Source of the DNA: Qipengyuania profundimaris
GTDB lineage: Bacteria; Pseudomonadota; Alphaproteobacteria; Sphingomonadales; Sphingomonadaceae
Reading direction: 5' to 3'
Assembly (NCBI RefSeq): GCF_030717945.1
Contig: NZ_JAVAIM010000001.1
Span: 1,301,131-1,365,130, forward strand
DNA length: 64,000 nucleotides
Below the pieces are notes generated by a model that made no database searches, was not told where the DNA came from, and was given only the letters and a program-made list of their open reading frames with translations. A program made the translations under genes and the position numbers. The first letter of the stretch is position 1; each line of letters opens with the position of its first letter. This document shows positions 54,058-63,808 of the stretch, one piece after another.

Positions 54058-54471
54058 CTACTGATCCGAACCCTTCACCTTCCCCCACTGACGCGCCGCC
54101 GTGTACCCGAGATAGCCCGTGCCAAATAGCGCATAGAGCGCATCCGGCAGCGCGGCGAGGTAGCGGGTCATGCCGGTACCGATGTTGTGCGCGGCTTGCG
54201 CGTCGAAGGCGGCGATCACGCCCATCGGCACGCTGAACAGGATCAGAGCATACATCACATAGAGGAAGCTGGGCCGTGCGCGGCTGGTCCAGGGATCGGC
54301 GCTTTGCGCCTCGGCGACAATGGCGGAGAGGCGCGCTTCGATGGCCTTCAGTTCCTGCGTACCCTCCAGCGCGATGAGTTCGAGCTTGGCCTTGGCGCGC
54401 GCTTCCTTGTCCGGGATCACCTTGTCGATGATCGAGGCGATGGGGCCGATGAGCGAATCGATGAGGGGCAT
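54058..54471 (-). CDS. 3TM holin of the gene-transfer-agent type (orphan)
   Basis: A 137-residue protein: a helical N-terminus PLIDSLIGPIASIIDKVIPDKEARAKAKLELIALEG followed by helix-rich EARLSAIVAEAQSADPWTSRARPSFLYVMYALILFSVPMGVI and a second membrane segment (YLAALPDALYALFGTGYLGYTAAR). This fits the GTA_holin_3TM family found in alphaproteobacterial gene transfer agents and prophages. No capsid, tail or lysin gene is nearby, so it is a lone holin, perhaps domesticated or a relic. Confidence 0.8.
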   Translation of the reverse strand: MPLIDSLIGPIASIIDKVIPDKEARAKAKLELIALEGTQELKAIEARLSAIVAEAQSADPWTSRARPSFLYVMYALILFSVPMGVIAAFDAQAAHNIGTGMTRYLAALPDALYALFGTGYLGYTAARQWGKVKGSDQ

Positions 54472-54566: not shown

Positions 54567-56168
54567 CTAATCGACAATCACTTGAAAGGTGAAGGCGACA
54601 GATGCTCCCGCTGCCAGGCTGGAGGTCGTGGCGCGAACTTCACCTGAGACGAACTGCGCTCCACGTGGATCGGACTCGTCGGCCCCCGCGCCGTCGTCGT
54701 CCTCGACCGTGGTCGCATTGGCACACCCCGTCCCGGACCTGATCGACCCGGAGACGAAAGAGGTTTCGGGCGGAATCGCGTCGGTCATCAGGACATTCGA
54801 TGCGGCAGTATCACCGGTGTTCGATGCAAGCAGGCAGTACTCGATCAAAGCGCCGGGTACATTGAATTCTGTCGAACCGACCGGGATCATGTCGTCGATC
54901 ACGCGGCTCGTCTTGCTAAGCGCTATGGTTGTGTCAGGTCGGCAGAAAGTGATGTCGTGAAGCGCGATGCCCTGCTGGCCGGGATCGACCGGAGCCGCGG
55001 CATGATTGCCATAGCTAATGATAATCCTATCGATCGGCTGGCTGAAAGTGACCACGACATTGCCGAAGCTGGAATCATTGTCTGAAGCCCCGTCACCGTA
55101 TGCGCTATTGCCGATCACGTAGTTTGCGCTGCCGTTCGTGAGCGTCGGGGTGACATTTGCCCCCTGATAGCGCCCTTCGACGGTCACCAGATCCGCAAAC
55201 TGCCCCGGGTTGCTATCGACATCGAATATCGTGAACTGCGCACCGCGCATGATTGCAGGCAAGGTGATCGTGGTGACGGCACGCCCGGCCCTCGAGGGCT
55301 GGTCTGCCACCTGCCCTAGCGAGAACTGGCTTGGGGATAGTCCTCCCGTGAACCCGTTTTGCCGCACTGGCGATTGTCCGCCGAATGTCGCGTTGTTGAG
55401 CCAGGCTCCGTCGGTCGTCAGGTTGAACCCGATATTTCCGAGTGTCCCGAGCGCATAGGTGTTGCTCGTCGAGCCCGCCGTCCAGGTGACAGCATCCCAA
55501 TCGAAGACGATCGTCTGGTTGGGGCAGGTGAGCGCTGGTGCGACCCCGGCCTGGCGAGCCAAAGTCAGATACAGATCCGACCGCACGAATGTCCCGTTGT
55601 CCGCCGTCGGGAAAAGATCGCAAATTTCCAGGCGCCATGTGCCCGCGGCGCTCTGCCCGTTGAACGCCGAAAGGGCCGCCCGGGGACGAAAAGTGTTCTG
55701 GTAAGGCGGGGCGGAGGTTGAATGGTTGCCTGTCGCGCTGTCGCTGTTGACCACCTGCGTCGCCGCATCGTCGAGCAGGACATTGAAGTTGTCGCCACTA
55801 ACGTTGTTCGTATCGCCGTTTGTCATGCGGACGCGCGTCCCGGTTGGGGATTGCAGGGTGAACTGCAGGTCGCCGCGCCAGGTATGTGTGGCGAGAATGC
55901 CGATATTGATGTCGGCCACCGTTCCCGTCGACGACACGGTGAAGTTGCGAACGAGAGGATTGGTGCAGACGGTCGTACTGTTGATTGCACCGTTCGTTGT
56001 ATTGGAGAAAGTCGAAGATGCCTGAGCCGCCGCCGGTGTAGCGTTCAGCATCATCGCGAGGCCAAGAACCAGCAGTGCAATGCAGTATCCGGCCACGCCG
56101 CGCACCCGCTCCAGCAGTGAAGCGCCGAACATCTGTAGCTGGCAATTGATCGTCGCGTTTATGCTCAT
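54567..56168 (-). CDS. Secreted P-domain and DUF11 protein (operon gene E)
   Basis: A 533-residue secreted protein. The signal region (residues 1-~50) ends ATPAAAQA. Residues ~55-175 form a proprotein-convertase P-like domain (DINIGILATHTWRGDLQFTLQSPTG, then AAGTWRLEICDLFPTADNGTF) without any protease domain. The centre (~180-400) is a beta-rich anchor-type domain, and residues ~410-533 a DUF11 repeat ending AFTFQVIVD at the very C-terminus. Its ATG overlaps the stop of the giant gene (ATGA). It is the last gene of the operon. Confidence 0.82.
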   Translation of the reverse strand: MSINATINCQLQMFGASLLERVRGVAGYCIALLVLGLAMMLNATPAAAQASSTFSNTTNGAINSTTVCTNPLVRNFTVSSTGTVADINIGILATHTWRGDLQFTLQSPTGTRVRMTNGDTNNVSGDNFNVLLDDAATQVVNSDSATGNHSTSAPPYQNTFRPRAALSAFNGQSAAGTWRLEICDLFPTADNGTFVRSDLYLTLARQAGVAPALTCPNQTIVFDWDAVTWTAGSTSNTYALGTLGNIGFNLTTDGAWLNNATFGGQSPVRQNGFTGGLSPSQFSLGQVADQPSRAGRAVTTITLPAIMRGAQFTIFDVDSNPGQFADLVTVEGRYQGANVTPTLTNGSANYVIGNSAYGDGASDNDSSFGNVVVTFSQPIDRIIISYGNHAAAPVDPGQQGIALHDITFCRPDTTIALSKTSRVIDDMIPVGSTEFNVPGALIEYCLLASNTGDTAASNVLMTDAIPPETSFVSGSIRSGTGCANATTVEDDDGAGADESDPRGAQFVSGEVRATTSSLAAGASVAFTFQVIVD

Positions 56169-59100
56169 CGGCCCAAACCCAGGAATCCGAAGCTGTCGGC
56201 ATCGAACTTCAGGCGGAAGCTGGCGTAAAGACCCTCGTCTGTGTTGCGCGCGGCGCTGAAGTCTTCGTCGCGGAAGCCGGACACGTTGTAGCCGACGCTC
56301 AGCAGCATGTCGTCTGCCGGGACGAAGCCGACTTCCGGGCCGAATGCGAAGCTGGTGTAGCCATCGGTGAGGCCGCTGCGCACAGTCGCGCGCCCGCCGA
56401 CCTCGAAGCGCTCGCCGATACCGATACGGGCATCCAGTCCGCCAAGCAGCGTCCAGCCCGAAGCGTCGTAGCCTTCGAAGCTGTCGAAATTGTATCGCGT
56501 GCCGACGAACACGCCGATTTCGGTGCGCTGGAAAAGTCCGCCATCGTCTTCGTCGTAACCGCGCGGCGACCAATTCGTCGAGAGGCTGCCGATGAGGCGG
56601 CGCGATTTCGCCTCGCCATCCACAGTCAGGGCCGTGCGTCCGGCAGGCCCGGTCTCGCCTGCGACGGCGCCGCGAACTTCGTCGCTGCGATATTCGATCT
56701 TGGCGAGGAAAGCGAAAGGCGATTCGTCCGGGCGGTGGGCGATCGCGATCGCGCCGTCCATGATCTCGCTCATCGCTCCGAAATCGTCTTCGGCATTCGT
56801 CCAGGTAAAGCCGGAGCCGACCACGCTGCCTTCACCGAGCTGGCGGATAGCGCCGAAGGTCACGCCCTTGCGATCGGCCTGTTCGCCGTCGCGAAACTCG
56901 CCGCGGAAGTTGGCAGCCCAGCGATCCTTGCGCCAGGTTGCGCCGGCGGTGATGGCGACAAAGTCCTCGAACAGCTGACCGTCCTGGCCGAGATGACCGC
57001 CGCTGGCGACGGGGTGAAGCGGATTGATCACCTTGCTCGGATCGACGCCGCCGATCTGCCGGTTTCCGTCGACGGTGAAGTCGACCGTGAGATTGCTGGT
57101 CACAGGCAGACTCTGCGCAAGACCGAAGGCAGCGAAAGAACGCGGGCCATATTCGGAGATCGTCTGCCGGCCCAATGTGCCGGTAACGCGTGCGCCGGTC
57201 CACGGGGCGAGCTCGATGCCGCCCTGCACGGTGCGAGCGTCGATCGCTTCGCCCTCGGCAATCTCGTAGCTACCGATCAGGCGGATGGCATTCGTCACGG
57301 CATAGCGCGCGCCGAAGCGGTGGCGGGTCGGAAGATCGATGGAGTCCGTGTTCTCCAGCGCGATGCTGGTGCTGGCATTCAGTTCCAGCCGGTTGTCGAG
57401 CAAGCGCTGGCTGGCACCTGCTTCAACCACGGTCGACGAGCCGGTCGTGCCGTCCTGGAACCGGTCGGAGAAATGGGCGAGGCCGAGACGCAGGTCGGTC
57501 GATTGCGAACGCCAGGCGGCCTGCACCTGAATTGCATTGCGGCGTGCCGCGTCGGTCAGGCTGTCGTCGCGCCAGGCACTGCCGGTCACGCTGAGATCCT
57601 CGGTGATCGAATAGCGTGCATCGACACCCACCTTGGTGCGTCCACGTTCGACGGCGTTCTGCTGTTCGACGCCGTAGCCTTCCTCGATGCTGCGGGCATA
57701 CGCCAGGACGTCGAGCTTGCCGGTATGGTGTTCGGCCTCGACCTGCCAGGCAGCCTTGGTTTCGCCTTCGCTATGGCTGGCCCCGATTTCGGCGCGCACT
57801 TCCGTTGCAGCGCCGATCCGTGCGCGCACATCGGCGGCGACGATTTCGGTGCGCGGTCCATCGCCCTTGTCGGTAATGGCGCTGGCGCCGATGCGCAGGT
57901 TGCCGTCTGCCACGGTAACATCGGCGCGAACGCCGGCATTGAGTTCGCCCGACGAGGTCAGCTGGTCGATTTCGTAATCGATAACGATGAACTGCGGGTT
58001 GAGATCGAAATCGCGGCTCAGGACCGGCTGGGTAAAGGTGATCGTGCCCGAGAGGATGTCGATGTCATAGTCGACGAACCGCTCGAGTTCGCGGCGTTCG
58101 ACGATGACTTCAGAACGGAAGCGGTCGCGCGTTTCGATGGCGACGCGTTCCGAATTGATGACGATCGCGCGGCTGGACAGGCGGTAGGGGCCCGACAGAC
58201 CGTTGCCCTGGATTTCGTCACGGCGGAAGCGGGTTTCGGTTTCGGCTGCAAAGCCCTGGACGTGCAGCTTACCGAACCGGCCTTCTGCTTTCATGCCGGT
58301 GGCGGCGCGATCGTAACGGGCAAGGTCGGTCTGGTCGAAACCGGTGCGGAAGTCGCCGTAGATTGCGTAGAAGGTCTCGGTCTCGACGCGGACATACAGC
58401 TTGCCGCGGCTGGCGGCATCGAAGCGGCGCGTGGAGCCATCGCCGTACACAGTGTAATAGGCGTTGGGATCGATCGTGCCTTCGAGGCGCTGTTCTTCAC
58501 GCTGCTTGGCGCTGTCATAGGCGGCGGTCACGAGGAATTTACCGAGCACGCGGCCCTTCGCATAAAGCGCCACGCGGGCCTCGTCGCCAAGATCGCTGTC
58601 GAAGCGCCCGGTGCGCTGCATGTTGTCCGCGACAGTGCGCGCGCCCGCGGAGCCTTCGGCGAGGCCGACGACTGTCCAGGGCTGGTCGCCCGGCACCATC
58701 CAGCCTTCGATTTCCTGAGTGCGCGTGATCTGGCGGTCGGTAAAGCTGAACTGCAGATGCAGGGGGCCGCTAACCATCGTCGGCGCCAGTTCGATCAAAG
58801 CTACGCCGTCATCGCCTTCGACCGTCCAGGTCGGCGATGCGCCGCCAAGGCCGGTCAGCTGGCGCAGCTGCATTGCTTCGATCGCCTGCGCGCTCTCGTA
58901 GGGCGCATTGATGGCAACGCTGCCGCTGACGCCGCTGCGAACCGGGCGGCTCTTACGGTCGGTGATACGCACCGCGATCACCGGCTTGTTTTCGCCATCG
59001 GCTACCAGGCGCGAGCGAGCGTCGATGAGTTCGGCCTTGGCGGGGGCGGCGGCGAAATTGACGCTACGCTCCAGCGCGGCAATTTCTTCGCCGTTCGCCG

Positions 59101-61210
59101 ACAGGACACGCGCAGTCAGGCTTGTGAGCTCGGATTTCAGGGCAACGCCGCGCCAGACGCTCACCGCATAACTGCTATCGGCAGACTTCTTCACTCCGTC
59201 GAAAGCCAGCGGATCGACGCGTTCTCCATTGGCCGACAATTCTACTTTCTCGCCGACTTGGTGGCGGATCGCAACCCGGACCGCAGGAGCGCGAGGATTG
59301 TGGCCGACTTCAGGAAAAAGGAATTCGGTCGGGCCATCGCCGACAGCGGCCCAATCGATGTCCGCGCCGGCGGCGGCCGCGTCCTCGAGCGGGGTTTCAT
59401 CGCCTTCGGGGGTGGGCGGAGCCCAATCCGCAGGCAGTGTCGCATGAAAATCCGCGACTACGAGGCTGCCACCCTGGCCCCGCACGAAGAGCGAGTTCGT
59501 CGCACCCGCGTTGGCCGTCGAGCGGCTGCAATCGACGAATGCGCCGCCCTCGGGCAGGGTCTGCTCTTGCGCCTGGACCACATGCGTGCCGGGCATCAGC
59601 CCCTCGAAGTGATAGCGGCCGTCGCGGTCGGTAATGGCGAAGCTGCCGTCCTCGAGCATGACGCGCACGCCCGGAATACCGCGCCGTCCATCCTGCAGCA
59701 GGCAGTCGCCTTCGGTGATCCGTCCGATCAGGGTCATGCGATCGGCGATAATGTCGCGCTCAACTCGCAGGCTGGCCGTGGCCGTGGTTAAGTCTCCGCG
59801 ACTGTCGACGATGTCTGCCCGGTTTTCGATCACGCCGGGCGGGGCATCGGCGCGGATGGTCATGGCATATGTTGCGCGGCGGCTCTCTCCGGCGGGGATG
59901 TCACCGAACGCGATCTGAAGTTCGCGGCCGTCCGGGCTGATGGTAACTCGATCGTCAGCCTCTTCGCCATCGATGCGGATACTGTCACGGCGCAGGCGCA
60001 ACCAGGGGGAGGGTGTATCGGTGACGACCACATCGCGCTTTGCGCCGATCGTATCCGGATTGGAGACCGTAACCACGTAGAACACGACGTCGCCTGGCGC
60101 GGCAATCTGGCGCGATGCGGTCTTGGTGATGTCGAGTGTGACCAGCGGACGATCGAGCGGGATATCGAACTCTACCGGGCCCCCGTCGGCCAGGGTGAAA
60201 GCGTTCGAATAGGAGCCGTCCGTGATGATGTAGCTCTCGCCATCGGGACGATTGAAGGGCGCGAGTTCCGCCGGTGTCGCCTCCGACGGAGCGGTGTAGG
60301 GCGGGGGAGGCTGGATCAGCAGACGGTAGGTTCCGGGCGAAAGCACCGGGAAGCGGTATTCACCTGGCGCCAGCGGGAAGGCGCCGCCATCGGCCAGGGG
60401 AATCGTGCTGCCGCTGACCACCGTCGAGGGCCAAGGCGTCACGCCATCGTCGGCGTAAACGGTTGCGGGCTGGCCGGTCGCGGTGTCGATGATTGTGACA
60501 CGCGCCCCATTCACCAGACTTCCGTCTTGGCTGTCGAAAACATAACCAAACGGGTTCGAAATGGCAGCGACAATGGTCGAGACGATCGGATCGCCGGTCG
60601 GACCGGGGTACGAAATCGTTATGTCGTCGCCGGAGCGAAGCGAAAGTGCGCAATCGCCCTGGACCGGCGCTGGCGGAACGAATGTCGTGGGAATTGCACC
60701 GACGAACTCGCCTGTGTTCTCGCCGGTTTCGAAGATCGTCAGCCGCTCTTCGTCGCCGGACTGGGCGGAGATCACAACCTCGATGGAATCGATGGCGGAG
60801 GTGTCGCGATTGGCTCTCCGGGCGTTGATGCTGAAAAACAGCGTCTGACCGATGCGAATTTCATTAGTGGCTTCGAGCGCAACCGGCTCGGCAGTCGCCG
60901 CACCGCCGGTCATGAACGACATGTCGATCGGCGCTCCGCCGCATAGCGACGGAGATAACGGGTACTGCACGCCTCCGGTGGGCGAAGGCACGAATGTGCC
61001 GATTGTCACCGGGGTATCGTCGATTTCCAGAGCAACTTCGTTGGAAGTCGTCGCGCCCGGAAGATCGCCGCTGCGCCAGCTGGCTTCGGCGATATTGGTG
61101 ATTACACGGACTGCGTCGGCAGTCTGGGCATAGGCCGGAACCAGCACGAAAAGCAGCAGCATTCCGAGGAATGCCACTGCCTTTCGCGAGAGGTTCAGGT
61201 CGATGACCAT
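56165..61210 (-). CDS. Giant DUF11/carboxypeptidase-regulatory-like outer-membrane barrel protein (operon gene D)
   Basis: A 1681-residue secreted protein. After the signal peptide (1-29) come beta-domains: a carboxypeptidase-regulatory-like fold at ~220-330 (PFGYVFDSQDGSLVNGARVTI), DUF11 at ~353-480 (LVTLDITKTASRQIAAPGDVV), and a second regulatory fold at ~495-560 (LIGRITEGDCLLQDGRRG, GRYHFEGLMPGTHVV). From ~860 on it reads as repeated amphipathic strands (YTVYGDGSTRRFDAASRGKLYVRV, YAIYGDFRTGF) to the end, GLYASFRLKFDADSF, suggesting a barrel of many strands. It may display or export the small partners; the function is not known. Confidence 0.8.
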   Translation of the reverse strand: MVIDLNLSRKAVAFLGMLLLFVLVPAYAQTADAVRVITNIAEASWRSGDLPGATTSNEVALEIDDTPVTIGTFVPSPTGGVQYPLSPSLCGGAPIDMSFMTGGAATAEPVALEATNEIRIGQTLFFSINARRANRDTSAIDSIEVVISAQSGDEERLTIFETGENTGEFVGAIPTTFVPPAPVQGDCALSLRSGDDITISYPGPTGDPIVSTIVAAISNPFGYVFDSQDGSLVNGARVTIIDTATGQPATVYADDGVTPWPSTVVSGSTIPLADGGAFPLAPGEYRFPVLSPGTYRLLIQPPPPYTAPSEATPAELAPFNRPDGESYIITDGSYSNAFTLADGGPVEFDIPLDRPLVTLDITKTASRQIAAPGDVVFYVVTVSNPDTIGAKRDVVVTDTPSPWLRLRRDSIRIDGEEADDRVTISPDGRELQIAFGDIPAGESRRATYAMTIRADAPPGVIENRADIVDSRGDLTTATASLRVERDIIADRMTLIGRITEGDCLLQDGRRGIPGVRVMLEDGSFAITDRDGRYHFEGLMPGTHVVQAQEQTLPEGGAFVDCSRSTANAGATNSLFVRGQGGSLVVADFHATLPADWAPPTPEGDETPLEDAAAAGADIDWAAVGDGPTEFLFPEVGHNPRAPAVRVAIRHQVGEKVELSANGERVDPLAFDGVKKSADSSYAVSVWRGVALKSELTSLTARVLSANGEEIAALERSVNFAAAPAKAELIDARSRLVADGENKPVIAVRITDRKSRPVRSGVSGSVAINAPYESAQAIEAMQLRQLTGLGGASPTWTVEGDDGVALIELAPTMVSGPLHLQFSFTDRQITRTQEIEGWMVPGDQPWTVVGLAEGSAGARTVADNMQRTGRFDSDLGDEARVALYAKGRVLGKFLVTAAYDSAKQREEQRLEGTIDPNAYYTVYGDGSTRRFDAASRGKLYVRVETETFYAIYGDFRTGFDQTDLARYDRAATGMKAEGRFGKLHVQGFAAETETRFRRDEIQGNGLSGPYRLSSRAIVINSERVAIETRDRFRSEVIVERRELERFVDYDIDILSGTITFTQPVLSRDFDLNPQFIVIDYEIDQLTSSGELNAGVRADVTVADGNLRIGASAITDKGDGPRTEIVAADVRARIGAATEVRAEIGASHSEGETKAAWQVEAEHHTGKLDVLAYARSIEEGYGVEQQNAVERGRTKVGVDARYSITEDLSVTGSAWRDDSLTDAARRNAIQVQAAWRSQSTDLRLGLAHFSDRFQDGTTGSSTVVEAGASQRLLDNRLELNASTSIALENTDSIDLPTRHRFGARYAVTNAIRLIGSYEIAEGEAIDARTVQGGIELAPWTGARVTGTLGRQTISEYGPRSFAAFGLAQSLPVTSNLTVDFTVDGNRQIGGVDPSKVINPLHPVASGGHLGQDGQLFEDFVAITAGATWRKDRWAANFRGEFRDGEQADRKGVTFGAIRQLGEGSVVGSGFTWTNAEDDFGAMSEIMDGAIAIAHRPDESPFAFLAKIEYRSDEVRGAVAGETGPAGRTALTVDGEAKSRRLIGSLSTNWSPRGYDEDDGGLFQRTEIGVFVGTRYNFDSFEGYDASGWTLLGGLDARIGIGERFEVGGRATVRSGLTDGYTSFAFGPEVGFVPADDMLLSVGYNVSGFRDEDFSAARNTDEGLYASFRLKFDADSFGFLGLGR

Positions 61211-61223
61211 GATCCGGAAGCCG

Positions 61224-62270
61224 TCAGTCGATGATGGCCTGGAAGATCAACGTGCGGGTCTCGCCCGCTGCGATGTCATCGAGCGTACCGGACACTGTCG
61301 GATCCGCATAGGATCCAGTGCCCGTAGCGCCCGCAACGTCGCAGCTGGTGCTATTCGTGCTGACCGGGAAGTTGGTGTCCGTGTAGGTGAGGCCAGTCGG
61401 CACATCGTCGGTTACGTTAACGCCGGTGGCAGTCGCACTGCCAGCTGCGTTGGTTACCGAGATGCAGTACTGGATGGTCGCACCGGGGATTGCCTTGGGA
61501 TTGGTCGTCCCGCTCACCGGATCCTCGATCACCGAGCTGATCTTGGTCACAGTCAGCGCTGCTGCCGACACGACATAATCGTCCGCTGCCGAGAATGCGC
61601 CATCGTATTGCGCGTCGGTTTCGCCAGCGCCATCGGCCAGCACCGTATCGACCGCATCGACGGTGTTGGTCGCCGAAGTGGCGAGCAACGCGCCCTGCGA
61701 TCCTGCGGTCCCGCCAGCATACGCCGTTGCCGTGAGGATCACGGTCGCGACGTCGCCGGTAACTTGATCGATCGGAACGTCCGACACGACGAAGATGGTG
61801 CGGGTCTCGTCGGGTGCAAGTTCGTCGATATAGGTGACGGCAACTTCGTCCGTCCAATCGCCGTCACCGTCGGTATCGACGTAGATCAGGGTGTTTGTCG
61901 TATCGAAATTGTCGGTCCCGCCGAATGCGCCGGCGCCGCCCGCCTGTTGATCGACAGTCAGACCGAAGTCGGCCGTGTCGTTCGACAGGTTGGTCACCTG
62001 GAAGGTGGTGACCTGCTGCGTCGAGCCGGGTGACACGACCGTCTGCGTGCCGCCGACTTCGGCGACCGTCAGGTCGATCTTGCGGTCGACGACGAACTCG
62101 TCGGTCGCTTCCTGGTCATTCTGCGTGACGCCGCCGACCTGATAGGACACCGAAACGGTGTTCTGAATGGTCGTGCCGGCATCGGTCCCCGCGGCCAGGG
62201 CCGGGGAGGCGCCGAGAGCGATGAGCGGTACTATGCTCACCGCACCCAGCAATCTGCTGGTACGTTTCAT
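61224..62270 (-). CDS. Secreted DUF11-type protein (operon gene C)
   Basis: A 348-residue secreted protein. The signal peptide ends near SPALA-AG. GTTIQNTVSVSYQVGG resembles the N-terminal strand of gene A (GSIIENTATASYDDGG). Then come two or three beta-sandwich repeats, one with DVDGDGDWTD-like VDTDGDGDWTDE, a calcium-loop-like sequence. The last DUF11 repeat is VTKISSVIEDPVSG to TLIFQAIID, ending the chain. Residue content is Thr/Asp/Gly-rich with almost no Lys. It lies 13 bases before the giant gene. Confidence 0.82.
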   Translation of the reverse strand: MKRTSRLLGAVSIVPLIALGASPALAAGTDAGTTIQNTVSVSYQVGGVTQNDQEATDEFVVDRKIDLTVAEVGGTQTVVSPGSTQQVTTFQVTNLSNDTADFGLTVDQQAGGAGAFGGTDNFDTTNTLIYVDTDGDGDWTDEVAVTYIDELAPDETRTIFVVSDVPIDQVTGDVATVILTATAYAGGTAGSQGALLATSATNTVDAVDTVLADGAGETDAQYDGAFSAADDYVVSAAALTVTKISSVIEDPVSGTTNPKAIPGATIQYCISVTNAAGSATATGVNVTDDVPTGLTYTDTNFPVSTNSTSCDVAGATGTGSYADPTVSGTLDDIAAGETRTLIFQAIID

Positions 62271-62341
62271 GGTCTCGAACCCTCTGTTGTAATGGTCGCA
62301 CTTGTCAGCGCCCGCGACCTGCGGCGCGTTTCCTCCGCCGG

Positions 62342-62812
62342 TTAGCGGACGATCCCGTAGTAGCTGAGTTCACCGCTCTCGCCCGGCGCGACCTGTGCCA
62401 GGACCCACCGGATGTGCGTGACGTCGGACAGTTCCGCAGGCCGCCGACCAGCGTCGGCATCCGGAACGGCGAGGCGATCGAGCGCGGCGAAGGTTTCCCC
62501 TCCATCGACCGACACTTCGAAGCTTTCGTCGAGCTCGGCGAGCCGGACTGCCGAAGGCAGCGGATTCGTCACGACGAAATTCTCCGCCACCGCGTTTCCG
62601 CCATTCGCATAGCTGGTGGTGAACAGGAGGCGATCGCCCGGAACCACGCCCTCGGGGGCGGCCAGAGTCGTGCGTGATTGCCCGTTTTCGACCGTGGTGC
62701 GCTCGACTTTGACATCGCTCGAAAGAGCTACGTCGTTCTGCGCAGTGGCAGGTGCGGAAAAGCCCAGGGCCATGCAGGCCAGACCGAAGCTAAGTGCGAC
62801 TTTCTTGTTCAT
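62342..62812 (-). CDS. Small secreted DUF11-type protein (operon gene B)
   Basis: A 156-residue secreted protein with a signal peptide (KKVALSFGLACMALGFSAPATA-Q) and one DUF11-like domain: VPGDRLLFTTSYANGGNAVAENFVVTNPLPSAVRL, then VLAQVAPGESGELSYYGIVR at the end. AAGGA lies seven bases before the third of three consecutive ATGs (62812), which I choose. A single-domain size suggests a subunit or chaperone role in the operon, by inference. Confidence 0.8.
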   Translation of the reverse strand: MNKKVALSFGLACMALGFSAPATAQNDVALSSDVKVERTTVENGQSRTTLAAPEGVVPGDRLLFTTSYANGGNAVAENFVVTNPLPSAVRLAELDESFEVSVDGGETFAALDRLAVPDADAGRRPAELSDVTHIRWVLAQVAPGESGELSYYGIVR

Positions 62813-62833
62813 CATCATGTCCTTAGGGTCGGA

Positions 62834-63808
62834 TTAGTCGACGACGACGTCGAAGGTGACAGTGTAGTCGTTGCCGGAGGTCACGGTCCCGACATCGACG
62901 CTGATACCCGTTGCGCTCGCTTCGCCCGCATCGGCGTCGGCAGCGTCGGTCAGTGCCGCACCGTCGAGCGTCAGTGTGCCGGCTTCATAGGAAGTGAAGG
63001 TCGGGAAATCGTCGGTGATCACGAAGTTGTCGAACGACCCTGTGCCGGTGACTTCCGCCACAATGGTAAAGGTCACGATCGCGCCCGGAACCGCTTCGGT
63101 GCCGCCGAAGGGATCGGCGACAATCGCCGATTTCACCAGCGAGACCTGGGCTACACGTGCGATCAGCGAGCCGTCTGCATCGGCATCCGCATTGGTGAGG
63201 CCGACGACGGCATCGCTGCCACCTTCGCCCTGGCCCGCGAACGTCGTACCCGGTGCGCCGGTGCCGGTAACCGCTTCAGCCAGGAGATTGACGTCGCTGG
63301 TTTCCCCGTCGGTCAGGCCGCCAGGCGACGAGACGATAACGAAGATCGTGATGGCCTCGTCCGGATCGAGCAGCGGTGTCGGATCGCCGGGCGAAATGAC
63401 AATGTCGACGCCTTCTTCATAGATGCCGTCGCCATCGTCGTAGACGATCGCGTTGATCGTGACATCGAAGTCGTTCCCGGTGCGTCCCGGATCAGCGGTT
63501 AGGTTGAAAGCTTCCGGACCATTGCCGGTATTGGTTACTTCGAAGGTGAGCACCGCAGTTCCATTCCCCACTGGGACTGCGCTGCCGTCCTGCCAGGTTG
63601 TCGTAACGTTGAGCAGCTCGTCGACCTGGACCTCGACGGTATTCGACGTGACCGTGCGCGGCGTCGAGCCGCCATCGTCATATGACGCGGTCGCGGTATT
63701 CTCGATGATAGAGCCTGCGGGCACGCCATCGGCGAGTGCGGGCGAGGCAGCAAGGAGGGTGGCAAGGGCCAGCGTGCTGGCAGCGAGCTGATGGCGATGG
63801 TTCTTCAT
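62834..63808 (-). CDS. Secreted DUF11-type protein (operon gene A)
   Basis: A 324-residue secreted protein, first of the operon. The signal peptide ends LAASPALA-DG. GSIIENTATASYDDGG is the N-terminal strand shared with gene C, followed by an IENT-domain-like sandwich (NTGNGPEAFNLTADPG), an acidic VYDDGDGIYEEGVD loop, and a last DUF11 repeat (VSLKSAIVADPFGG-like) ending YTVTFDVVVD. The ATG at 63808 precedes the signal; a TTG at 63829 lies in frame. The ribosome site is weak. Confidence 0.82.
   Translation of the reverse strand: MKNHRHQLAASTLALATLLAASPALADGVPAGSIIENTATASYDDGGSTPRTVTSNTVEVQVDELLNVTTTWQDGSAVPVGNGTAVLTFEVTNTGNGPEAFNLTADPGRTGNDFDVTINAIVYDDGDGIYEEGVDIVISPGDPTPLLDPDEAITIFVIVSSPGGLTDGETSDVNLLAEAVTGTGAPGTTFAGQGEGGSDAVVGLTNADADADGSLIARVAQVSLVKSAIVADPFGGTEAVPGAIVTFTIVAEVTGTGSFDNFVITDDFPTFTSYEAGTLTLDGAALTDAADADAGEASATGISVDVGTVTSGNDYTVTFDVVVD

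What the first reader, a model, noticed from the sequence alone, without database searches (positions are those of the whole stretch)
54567..63808. Five-gene secreted DUF11 operon built around a 1681-residue outer-membrane barrel
Seen: five co-directional genes with gaps of 13-71 bases or ATGA overlap, all with signal peptides, all rich in DUF11-type beta-sandwiches, nearly Lys-free and acidic. The central protein ends in ~800 residues of barrel-like strands. Known: DUF11 modules occur in bacterial surface proteins, often of unknown role. Inference: the giant protein could anchor, display or export the smaller ones as a surface layer or fibre, a possibly undescribed assembly system.
Basis: partly seen in the sequence, partly recalled or inferred. 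Interest (0 to 1): 0.75.

Follow-up and report, generated by a model that had tools for sequence, protein, structure and literature searches.

The report
Self-locking surface fibre operon
A set of four neighbouring genes, kept together in many bacteria, appears to encode a surface fibre whose building blocks snap together end to end, and probably lock with a chemical bond, on a large outer-membrane anchor; if true, it is an undescribed way to build a tough bacterial surface thread.

Summary
The operon is real: A-B-C-D plus a variable E. "Rich in DUF11" is overstated; each protein has about one. In A, B, C and E the DUF11 domain runs to the C-terminus and lacks its final strands. The N-termini of A, C and D carry a motif (AGTxIxNxA or TITNxA) that resembles those missing strands. 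When acceptor and donor are joined in silico, an Asn falls on the isopeptide-Asn column of D's complete DUF11 in 76-95% of tested loci, against 6-17% for shuffled donors. The acceptor Lys and catalytic Asp are kept in 41-42 of 42 A and C proteins. In the 15 of 42 A proteins with one mature Lys, it is that Lys each time. A and C would thus chain head to tail by donor-hairpin complementation, probably locked by a Lys-Asn bond; D is the outer-membrane base, E an end (tip) subunit. A-B-C-D keep order in 40 of 41 loci; the commonest other neighbour is in 6 of 41. No complex was modelled, the barrel model is poor, and some join tests were weak. Fibre and bond are inferred. New variant of donor-strand fibres.

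The parts
62834..63808 (-). gene A: subunit with N-terminal donor hairpin and C-terminal truncated DUF11 (324 aa)
63617..63727 (-). A donor hairpin, residues 28-64, Asn37 in IIENTATASY
62837..63169 (-). A acceptor (truncated DUF11), residues 214-324, Lys226 is the only Lys of the mature protein
62342..62818 (-). gene B: small acceptor-like protein without conserved Lys or Asp and without donor motif (158 aa)
61224..62270 (-). gene C: subunit with donor hairpin and truncated C-terminal DUF11 (348 aa)
62085..62192 (-). C donor hairpin, residues 27-62, Asn37 in TIQNTVSVSY
61227..61565 (-). C acceptor (truncated DUF11), residues 236-348, Lys243
56165..61210 (-). gene D: outer-membrane anchor with N-terminal donor, complete DUF11, and C-terminal barrel (1681 aa)
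61019..61126 (-). D donor hairpin, residues 29-64, Asn39
59753..60148 (-). D complete DUF11, residues 355-486, Lys363, Asp398, Asn463
59564..59695 (-). D CarboxypepD_reg / SdrD_B domain, residues 506-549
56168..58687 (-). D barrel region, residues 842-1681
   Evidence: low-confidence model
54567..56168 (-). gene E: variable end (tip) protein with P-domain and C-terminal truncated DUF11 (533 aa)
55584..55913 (-). E P-domain, residues 86-195
   Evidence: positions there one too high
54570..54938 (-). E acceptor (truncated DUF11), residues 411-533, with the only Lys of the mature protein (Lys419)
   Evidence: positions there one too high

Best explanation
The operon makes a cell-surface fibre assembled by donor-hairpin complementation and probably locked by Lys-Asn isopeptide bonds between subunits. 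A and C each end in a DUF11 (CLIPPER) domain that lacks its last strands but carries the reactive Lys and the catalytic Asp. Each begins, just behind the apparent signal peptide, with a hairpin that resembles the missing strands and carries the Asn. The hairpin of one subunit completes the domain of the next: a head-to-tail chain. D has the hairpin at its N-terminus, a complete DUF11 of its own and a C-terminal barrel, so it is the base tied to the outer membrane. E, and different proteins in its place elsewhere, have an acceptor but no recognised donor, so they would sit at the far end, like a tip adhesin. B is acceptor-like without the bond chemistry, perhaps a reversible cap or chaperone. 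Shown by sequence analysis: synteny, truncated domains, donor motif, residue conservation. Inferred: complementation, covalent bond, fibre, polarity, location, tip role. Export through D's barrel is a guess.
For: Synteny: A, B, C, D all hit in 28 of 28 loci; in order in 40 of 41. A and D co-occur in 43 of 196 genomes, A alone 1, D alone 4. Truncation: C's DUF11 match ends at 83/114 at the C-terminus, E's at 82-84, D's own runs to 104. 42 of 45 B proteins listed and 8 of 18 E proteins listed align to within 5 residues of the end. Donor Asn kept in 39/42 A, 42/42 C, 40/42 D. Join test: Asn on the Asn463 column in 25/33 to 36/38 against 6-17% in shuffles. TIGR04226 for C acceptor: 21.4 alone, 29.7, 33.7, 28.8 with A, C, D donors, 20.3-24.5 with five controls. 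Lys kept in 42/42 A and all 41 aligned C; Asp 41/42 in both. Of 42 A proteins 15 have one mature Lys, 15 of 15 the predicted one. L041 lost acceptor Asp in A and C together with donor Asn in A and D.
Against: D model poor. AlphaFold2 gives C's hairpin pLDDT about 80 on its own, so it may belong to C's first domain. With home-made profiles the score gain is small: A donors 3.5-3.6 against 0.6 for shuffles, D donors 1.8-2.6 against 0.9-1.2, and reversed D donors do better (3.4-3.8). E acceptors place the donor Asn on the column in only 10/17, 4/17 and 4/14. The acceptor Lys is matched by motif, not by that profile alignment (0-8 loci aligned). A acceptor with A donor gives no TIGR04226 match. 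Ten of 18 E proteins align only in part. L041 kept C's donor Asn; L051 and L072 lost only A's. G233 has A without C or D. A or C could complement itself in cis.
Confidence: 0.6

Rival explanations
1. Donor-strand fibre without a covalent lock: the hairpin completes the next subunit non-covalently, as in chaperone-usher pili, and the Lys-Asp-Asn set is a structural leftover.
For: Donor Asn is lost in 3 of 42 A and 1 of 42 D; B lacks the chemistry in nearly all loci; PMC12617251 passages say that some DUF11 domains lack the bond.
Against: Lys is kept in all aligned A and C and Asp in 41 of 42, and a single retained Lys in 15 A proteins is always this one.
Confidence: 0.22
2. No polymer: the N-terminal hairpin is part of the first domain of A and C or completes the same chain's DUF11; the proteins are separate secreted surface proteins and D a large adhesin.
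For: AlphaFold2 gives the hairpin pLDDT about 80 in a single chain; weak gains.
Against: The same motif heads D, whose own DUF11 is complete, while E has an acceptor and no recognised donor, so a partner in trans is needed for these two; Asn placement far above shuffles; strict A-B-C-D linkage.
Confidence: 0.11
3. D is first of all a secretion pore for A, B, C and E, as in two-partner secretion, and the shared domains are targeting signals rather than joints.
For: Very large likely barrel; distant relatives lie next to a large DUF11/SdrD_B gene; shared C-terminal domain in A, B, C, E.
Against: Does not explain the donor motif on D itself or the kept Lys and Asp. Not exclusive of the fibre.
Confidence: 0.07

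Closest known systems
Chaperone-usher (type 1) pili
   Same: Incomplete Ig-like C-terminal domain, N-terminal donor, donorless tip protein, outer-membrane barrel (general knowledge; passage on donor strands)
   Different: No usher, PapD-like chaperone or fimbrial Pfam family found in A-E; donor looks like a hairpin; probable covalent lock
Archaeal threads (Saci_0406), PMC9715654 (passages)
   Same: Head-to-tail subunits by donor strand complementation with a proposed isopeptide bond between subunits
   Different: Asn57 to N-terminal Asp24 two subunits on, archaeal, no Pfam domain; here Lys-Asn with Asp in a DUF11 domain and an outer-membrane anchor
DUF11 / CLIPPER isopeptide domain, PMC12617251 (passages)
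   Same: Lys-Asp-Asn triad; D has all three in one chain
   Different: Here the Asn of A and C acceptors is supplied, by inference, by another chain
Engineered tag/catcher pairs (SpyTag and DogTag type; search listing)
   Same: Isopeptide domain split in two pieces that join covalently
   Different: Engineered, and not a natural polymer joint
Two-gene pairs of large DUF11/SdrD_B protein and barrel protein
   Same: Barrel part 842-1149 of D; donor-like N-termini in L064, L065, L082; acceptor-ended neighbour in L065 and L082
   Different: Anchor split over two genes; no A-B-C set seen in the stretches fetched

Membership tests
Chaperone-usher pilus system | usher, PapD-like chaperone and fimbrial subunit families | tested here: not met
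   No such Pfam match in A-E at E<=1; no flanking gene shared by more than 6 of 41 loci
Chaperone-usher pilus system | incomplete C-terminal Ig-like domain completed by the N-terminus of the next subunit | tested here: inconclusive
   Sequence pattern fits; no complex structure
DUF11 / CLIPPER isopeptide domain | Lys, Asp and Asn in one domain | tested here: met
   D: K363, D398, N463 in 41, 42, 41 of 42
DUF11 / CLIPPER isopeptide domain | Asn present in the same domain of A and C | tested here: not met
   The chain ends before it
Archaeal thread filament | sequence relation to Saci_0406 | tested here: not met
   No PDB sequence match for C at E<=1; 7pnb only a weak fold match
Sortase-assembled pilus | LPXTG-type C-terminal sorting signal | tested here: not met
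   C-termini read by eye end in the DUF11 strand
Classical autotransporter | autotransporter beta-domain family in D | tested here: not met
   No such Pfam match in D at E<=1
Donor-strand fibre of any kind | fibre seen on cells | not testable with these tools
   needs microscopy

The most novel reading that the evidence does not exclude
A natural tag/catcher polymer: a class of Gram-negative surface fibre in which the isopeptide-forming DUF11 domain is split between successive subunits, so that each joint is completed and covalently welded on contact, with no usher-family, PapD-like or sortase gene in the conserved set, on a very large outer-membrane barrel that is itself the last donor. It spans Alphaproteobacteria and other Pseudomonadota and carries interchangeable end proteins.
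Probability: 0.42. Interest if true: 0.9.

Novelty: new variant of a known kind. Interest (0 to 1): 0.78.

Why it matters
DUF11 is a widespread domain of bacterial and archaeal surface proteins whose within-chain isopeptide bond was described only in 2025 (PMC12617251, passages). A natural split version used as a polymer joint would show how such domains build fibres, give a sequence signature (truncated C-terminal DUF11 plus an IxNxA N-terminus) for finding fibre operons among genes now annotated as DUF11, TonB-dependent receptor or hypothetical protein, and offer ready-made covalent coupling parts. It also gives a testable role to a large family of barrel proteins.

Tried and rejected
Surface layer: no evidence for or against; not pursued. 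Relation of D to a solved barrel by sequence: the profile of D 485-1681 found nothing meaningful (best E 0.09, unrelated). RNA structure in the B-C gap (median 70 bases): z-scores from -1.9 to +1.2 in seven loci. Promoter scan: none found. Hydrophobic-moment count of barrel strands: 26 peaks in 860-1675 against 19 in 30-840, too weak to count strands. Foldseek of the C model: the 13 matches with E<=0.001 are integrin alpha chains at low TM-score; 7wrk (Thermus TTHA1873), type 1 pilins and 7pnb come lower; weak support only. No paper on TTHA1873 in the library. Home-made profile join test: modest, told under evidence against. Literature on a split DUF11 or an isopeptide-locked donor-strand fibre in Gram-negative bacteria: nothing in the listings, in an open-access library only; only passages of PMC9715654 and PMC12617251 were read.

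Full report
What is there. On the minus strand between 63808 and 54567 lie A (324 aa), B (158), C (348), D (1681) and E (533), with gaps of 15, 71 and 13 bases and an ATGA overlap of D and E. E starts at 56168; I used 56171, which adds one residue, so positions printed there for E are one too high. The genome is 2.95 Mb in 3 contigs; the nearest named relatives are Erythrobacter. Downstream lies a GTA_holin_3TM gene; upstream and divergent lie two genes that look like SecD and SecF, named by eye and recall from the translation.

Domains. Pfam finds one DUF11 in C and one in D over cut-off and one below cut-off in B and in E, a P-domain in E, and CarboxypepD_reg, SdrD_B and a marginal MtrB_PioB in D. 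NCBIfam adds the Lys-to-Asn isopeptide domain TIGR04226 in D over its cut-off. A and C are paralogues, about 30% identical.

A conserved set. With more loci, 40 of 41 loci with a D score above 700 bits have A-B-C-D in that order on one strand within 11 kb; the 41st, L061, fails because the longest open frame of C reaches back past B. These 41 include near-identical ones (L034-L036) and two genomes with two loci each (G014, G188). They were picked by D, or by A or D, so D's presence is by design. The independent test is the genome sample: A in 44 of 196 genomes of the order, D in 47, both in 43. The A-only genome (G233) has A and a B-like gene but no C or D match in the 19 kb fetched, on a contig that continues; the four D-only genomes hold only the distant barrel relative. 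In the genus 5 genomes have A and at least 10 lack it, so the set is patchy. Flanking genes are not shared: the commonest is in 6 of 41 loci (frames under 120 aa left out). In the family sample D matches occur in 23 of 59 genomes, in the phylum sample in 58 of 398. Of 20 loci fetched from that sample, L088 and L089 have A-B-C-D, and L090, L092, L093, L097 and L103 have B, at least two proteins with A/C-like acceptor, and D; the others show less, some only the distant barrel pair. An Acinetobacter plasmid has a similar run of genes.

The split domain. C's DUF11 match ends at profile position 83 of 114 and E's at 82-84, where the proteins stop. A profile trained on A and C acceptors aligns to within 5 residues of the C-terminus in 42 of 45 B proteins that it lists, and to the last residue in 8 of 18 E proteins; in the other 10 only its first part aligns, ending 54-90 residues from the end. 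The missing part holds the Asn of the isopeptide triad. The N-termini of A, C and D carry such an Asn: AGTxIxNxA in A and C, often AQTITNxAxASW in D, just behind the apparent signal peptide. It is kept in 39 of 42 A, 42 of 42 C and 40 of 42 D (window plus 41 loci). Some D proteins of more distant loci (L084, L088, L089, L097 and others) and three two-gene relatives start with a similar motif; others in the same list do not.

Tests of the join. Pfam DUF11 bits, C acceptor: alone 38.1, with A donor 43.0, C donor 43.1, D donor 41.3, shuffled A donor 38.4, another stretch of C 38.7; A acceptor 16.1 to 18.3 with C donor; E acceptor 28.1 to 34.9 with A donor. TIGR04226, C acceptor: alone 21.4, with A donor 29.7, C donor 33.7, D donor 28.8; controls 20.3 (shuffled), 21.8 (middle domain), 24.2 (reversed), 24.5 (E N-terminus), 21.8 (B N-terminus); A acceptor: no match alone or with A donor, 34.9 with C donor, 30.1 with D donor; E none with or without A donor. 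Other loci: L055 C 14.5 to 25.3 (A donor) and 21.2 (D donor), L060 20.8 to 25.5, L090 none to 24.4; L055 A acceptor with C donor 34.0, not run alone. Against a profile of D's own complete domain an Asn of the donor falls on the Asn463 column in 30/39, 31/38 and 25/33 (C with A, C, D donors) and 33/39, 36/38 and 29/33 (A with A, C, D donors); shuffled donors give 6-17%; with a 3-residue linker the real figures are 22/33 to 35/38. Loci in which my motif search found no donor were left out of these counts. I set the donor start six residues before the motif, since cleavage sites are not known. Weaker and contrary results are told under evidence against.

Chemistry. In the crystal of a DUF11 domain (9IFR) Lys715, Asp748 and Asn806 form the triad, the bond joining first and penultimate strands in this fold class (PMC12617251, passages). 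D has K363, D398 and N463 (41, 42 and 41 of 42). A keeps the Lys in 42 of 42 and C in 41 of 42 with one gap; both keep the Asp in 41 of 42; E has Lys 9 and gap 9 of 18 in a cut-off window, Asp 17 of 18; B has Asn in place of the Asp in 37 of 42 and a mixed Lys column. In L041 the acceptor Asp of A and C and the donor Asn of A and D are gone together, C's donor Asn staying; L051 and L072 lost only A's donor Asn.

Roles. A and C, with donor and acceptor, can chain. D, donor only, is a base. E, acceptor only, is an end. In E's place, downstream or upstream of the set, other genomes have different proteins with a DUF11-like C-terminal part; of ten scanned, two have a P-domain, six show only DUF11-type domains, one also SpaA_4, one nothing. 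This resembles exchangeable tips, but no binding activity is known. B is found with D in all 41 loci and is unexplained; a cap or chaperone is a guess.

The barrel. D 485-1681 folded with nine sequences gives mean pLDDT 42, yet 33 strands of seven or more residues from residue 947 on, and 49 of 50 listed PDB matches are outer-membrane barrels. Residues 842-1149 are shared with proteins annotated as TonB-dependent receptor or OmpA family, in several genomes encoded next to a large DUF11/SdrD_B protein, often with an ATGA overlap. Whether subunits pass through D is open.

Conclusion. The best reading is a donor-hairpin fibre with a probable covalent lock on an outer-membrane anchor. Synteny and the sequence pattern are solid; structure, bond and fibre are inferred. 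A natural split isopeptide joint of this kind was not seen in the nine searches named in Tried and rejected, in an open-access library only; natural autocatalytic bonds between chains are known elsewhere, such as phage capsids (PMC12617251) and, as proposed, archaeal threads (PMC9715654).

Noticed in passing
window 54058-54471 (-): A GTA_holin_3TM gene lies just downstream of E; a homologue is near the set in L034, L050 and L078 too.
   Followed up: partly
L108:11420-14009 (+), upstream of A outside the window: Two divergent genes that look like SecD and SecF by eye lie upstream of A; a SecD-like neighbour is in three of 41 loci.
   Followed up: no
L067:7996-9850: A and a B-like gene without C or D matches in the stretch fetched: a possible remnant or a different layout.
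   Followed up: partly
L084 (Acinetobacter haemolyticus plasmid p4): A related run of genes on a mobilizable plasmid with an OmpA-family gene after D and what look like broken pieces before it.
   Followed up: partly
G170:C1:3186198-3191321 and G140:C22:8434-13470: D homologues with one internal stop codon each.
   Followed up: no
L062-L065, L082, L083, L085, L086, L099-L102, L107: Pairs of a large SdrD_B/DUF11 protein and a barrel protein, often with overlapping genes, in several groups of Pseudomonadota; possibly a wider anchor family.
   Followed up: partly
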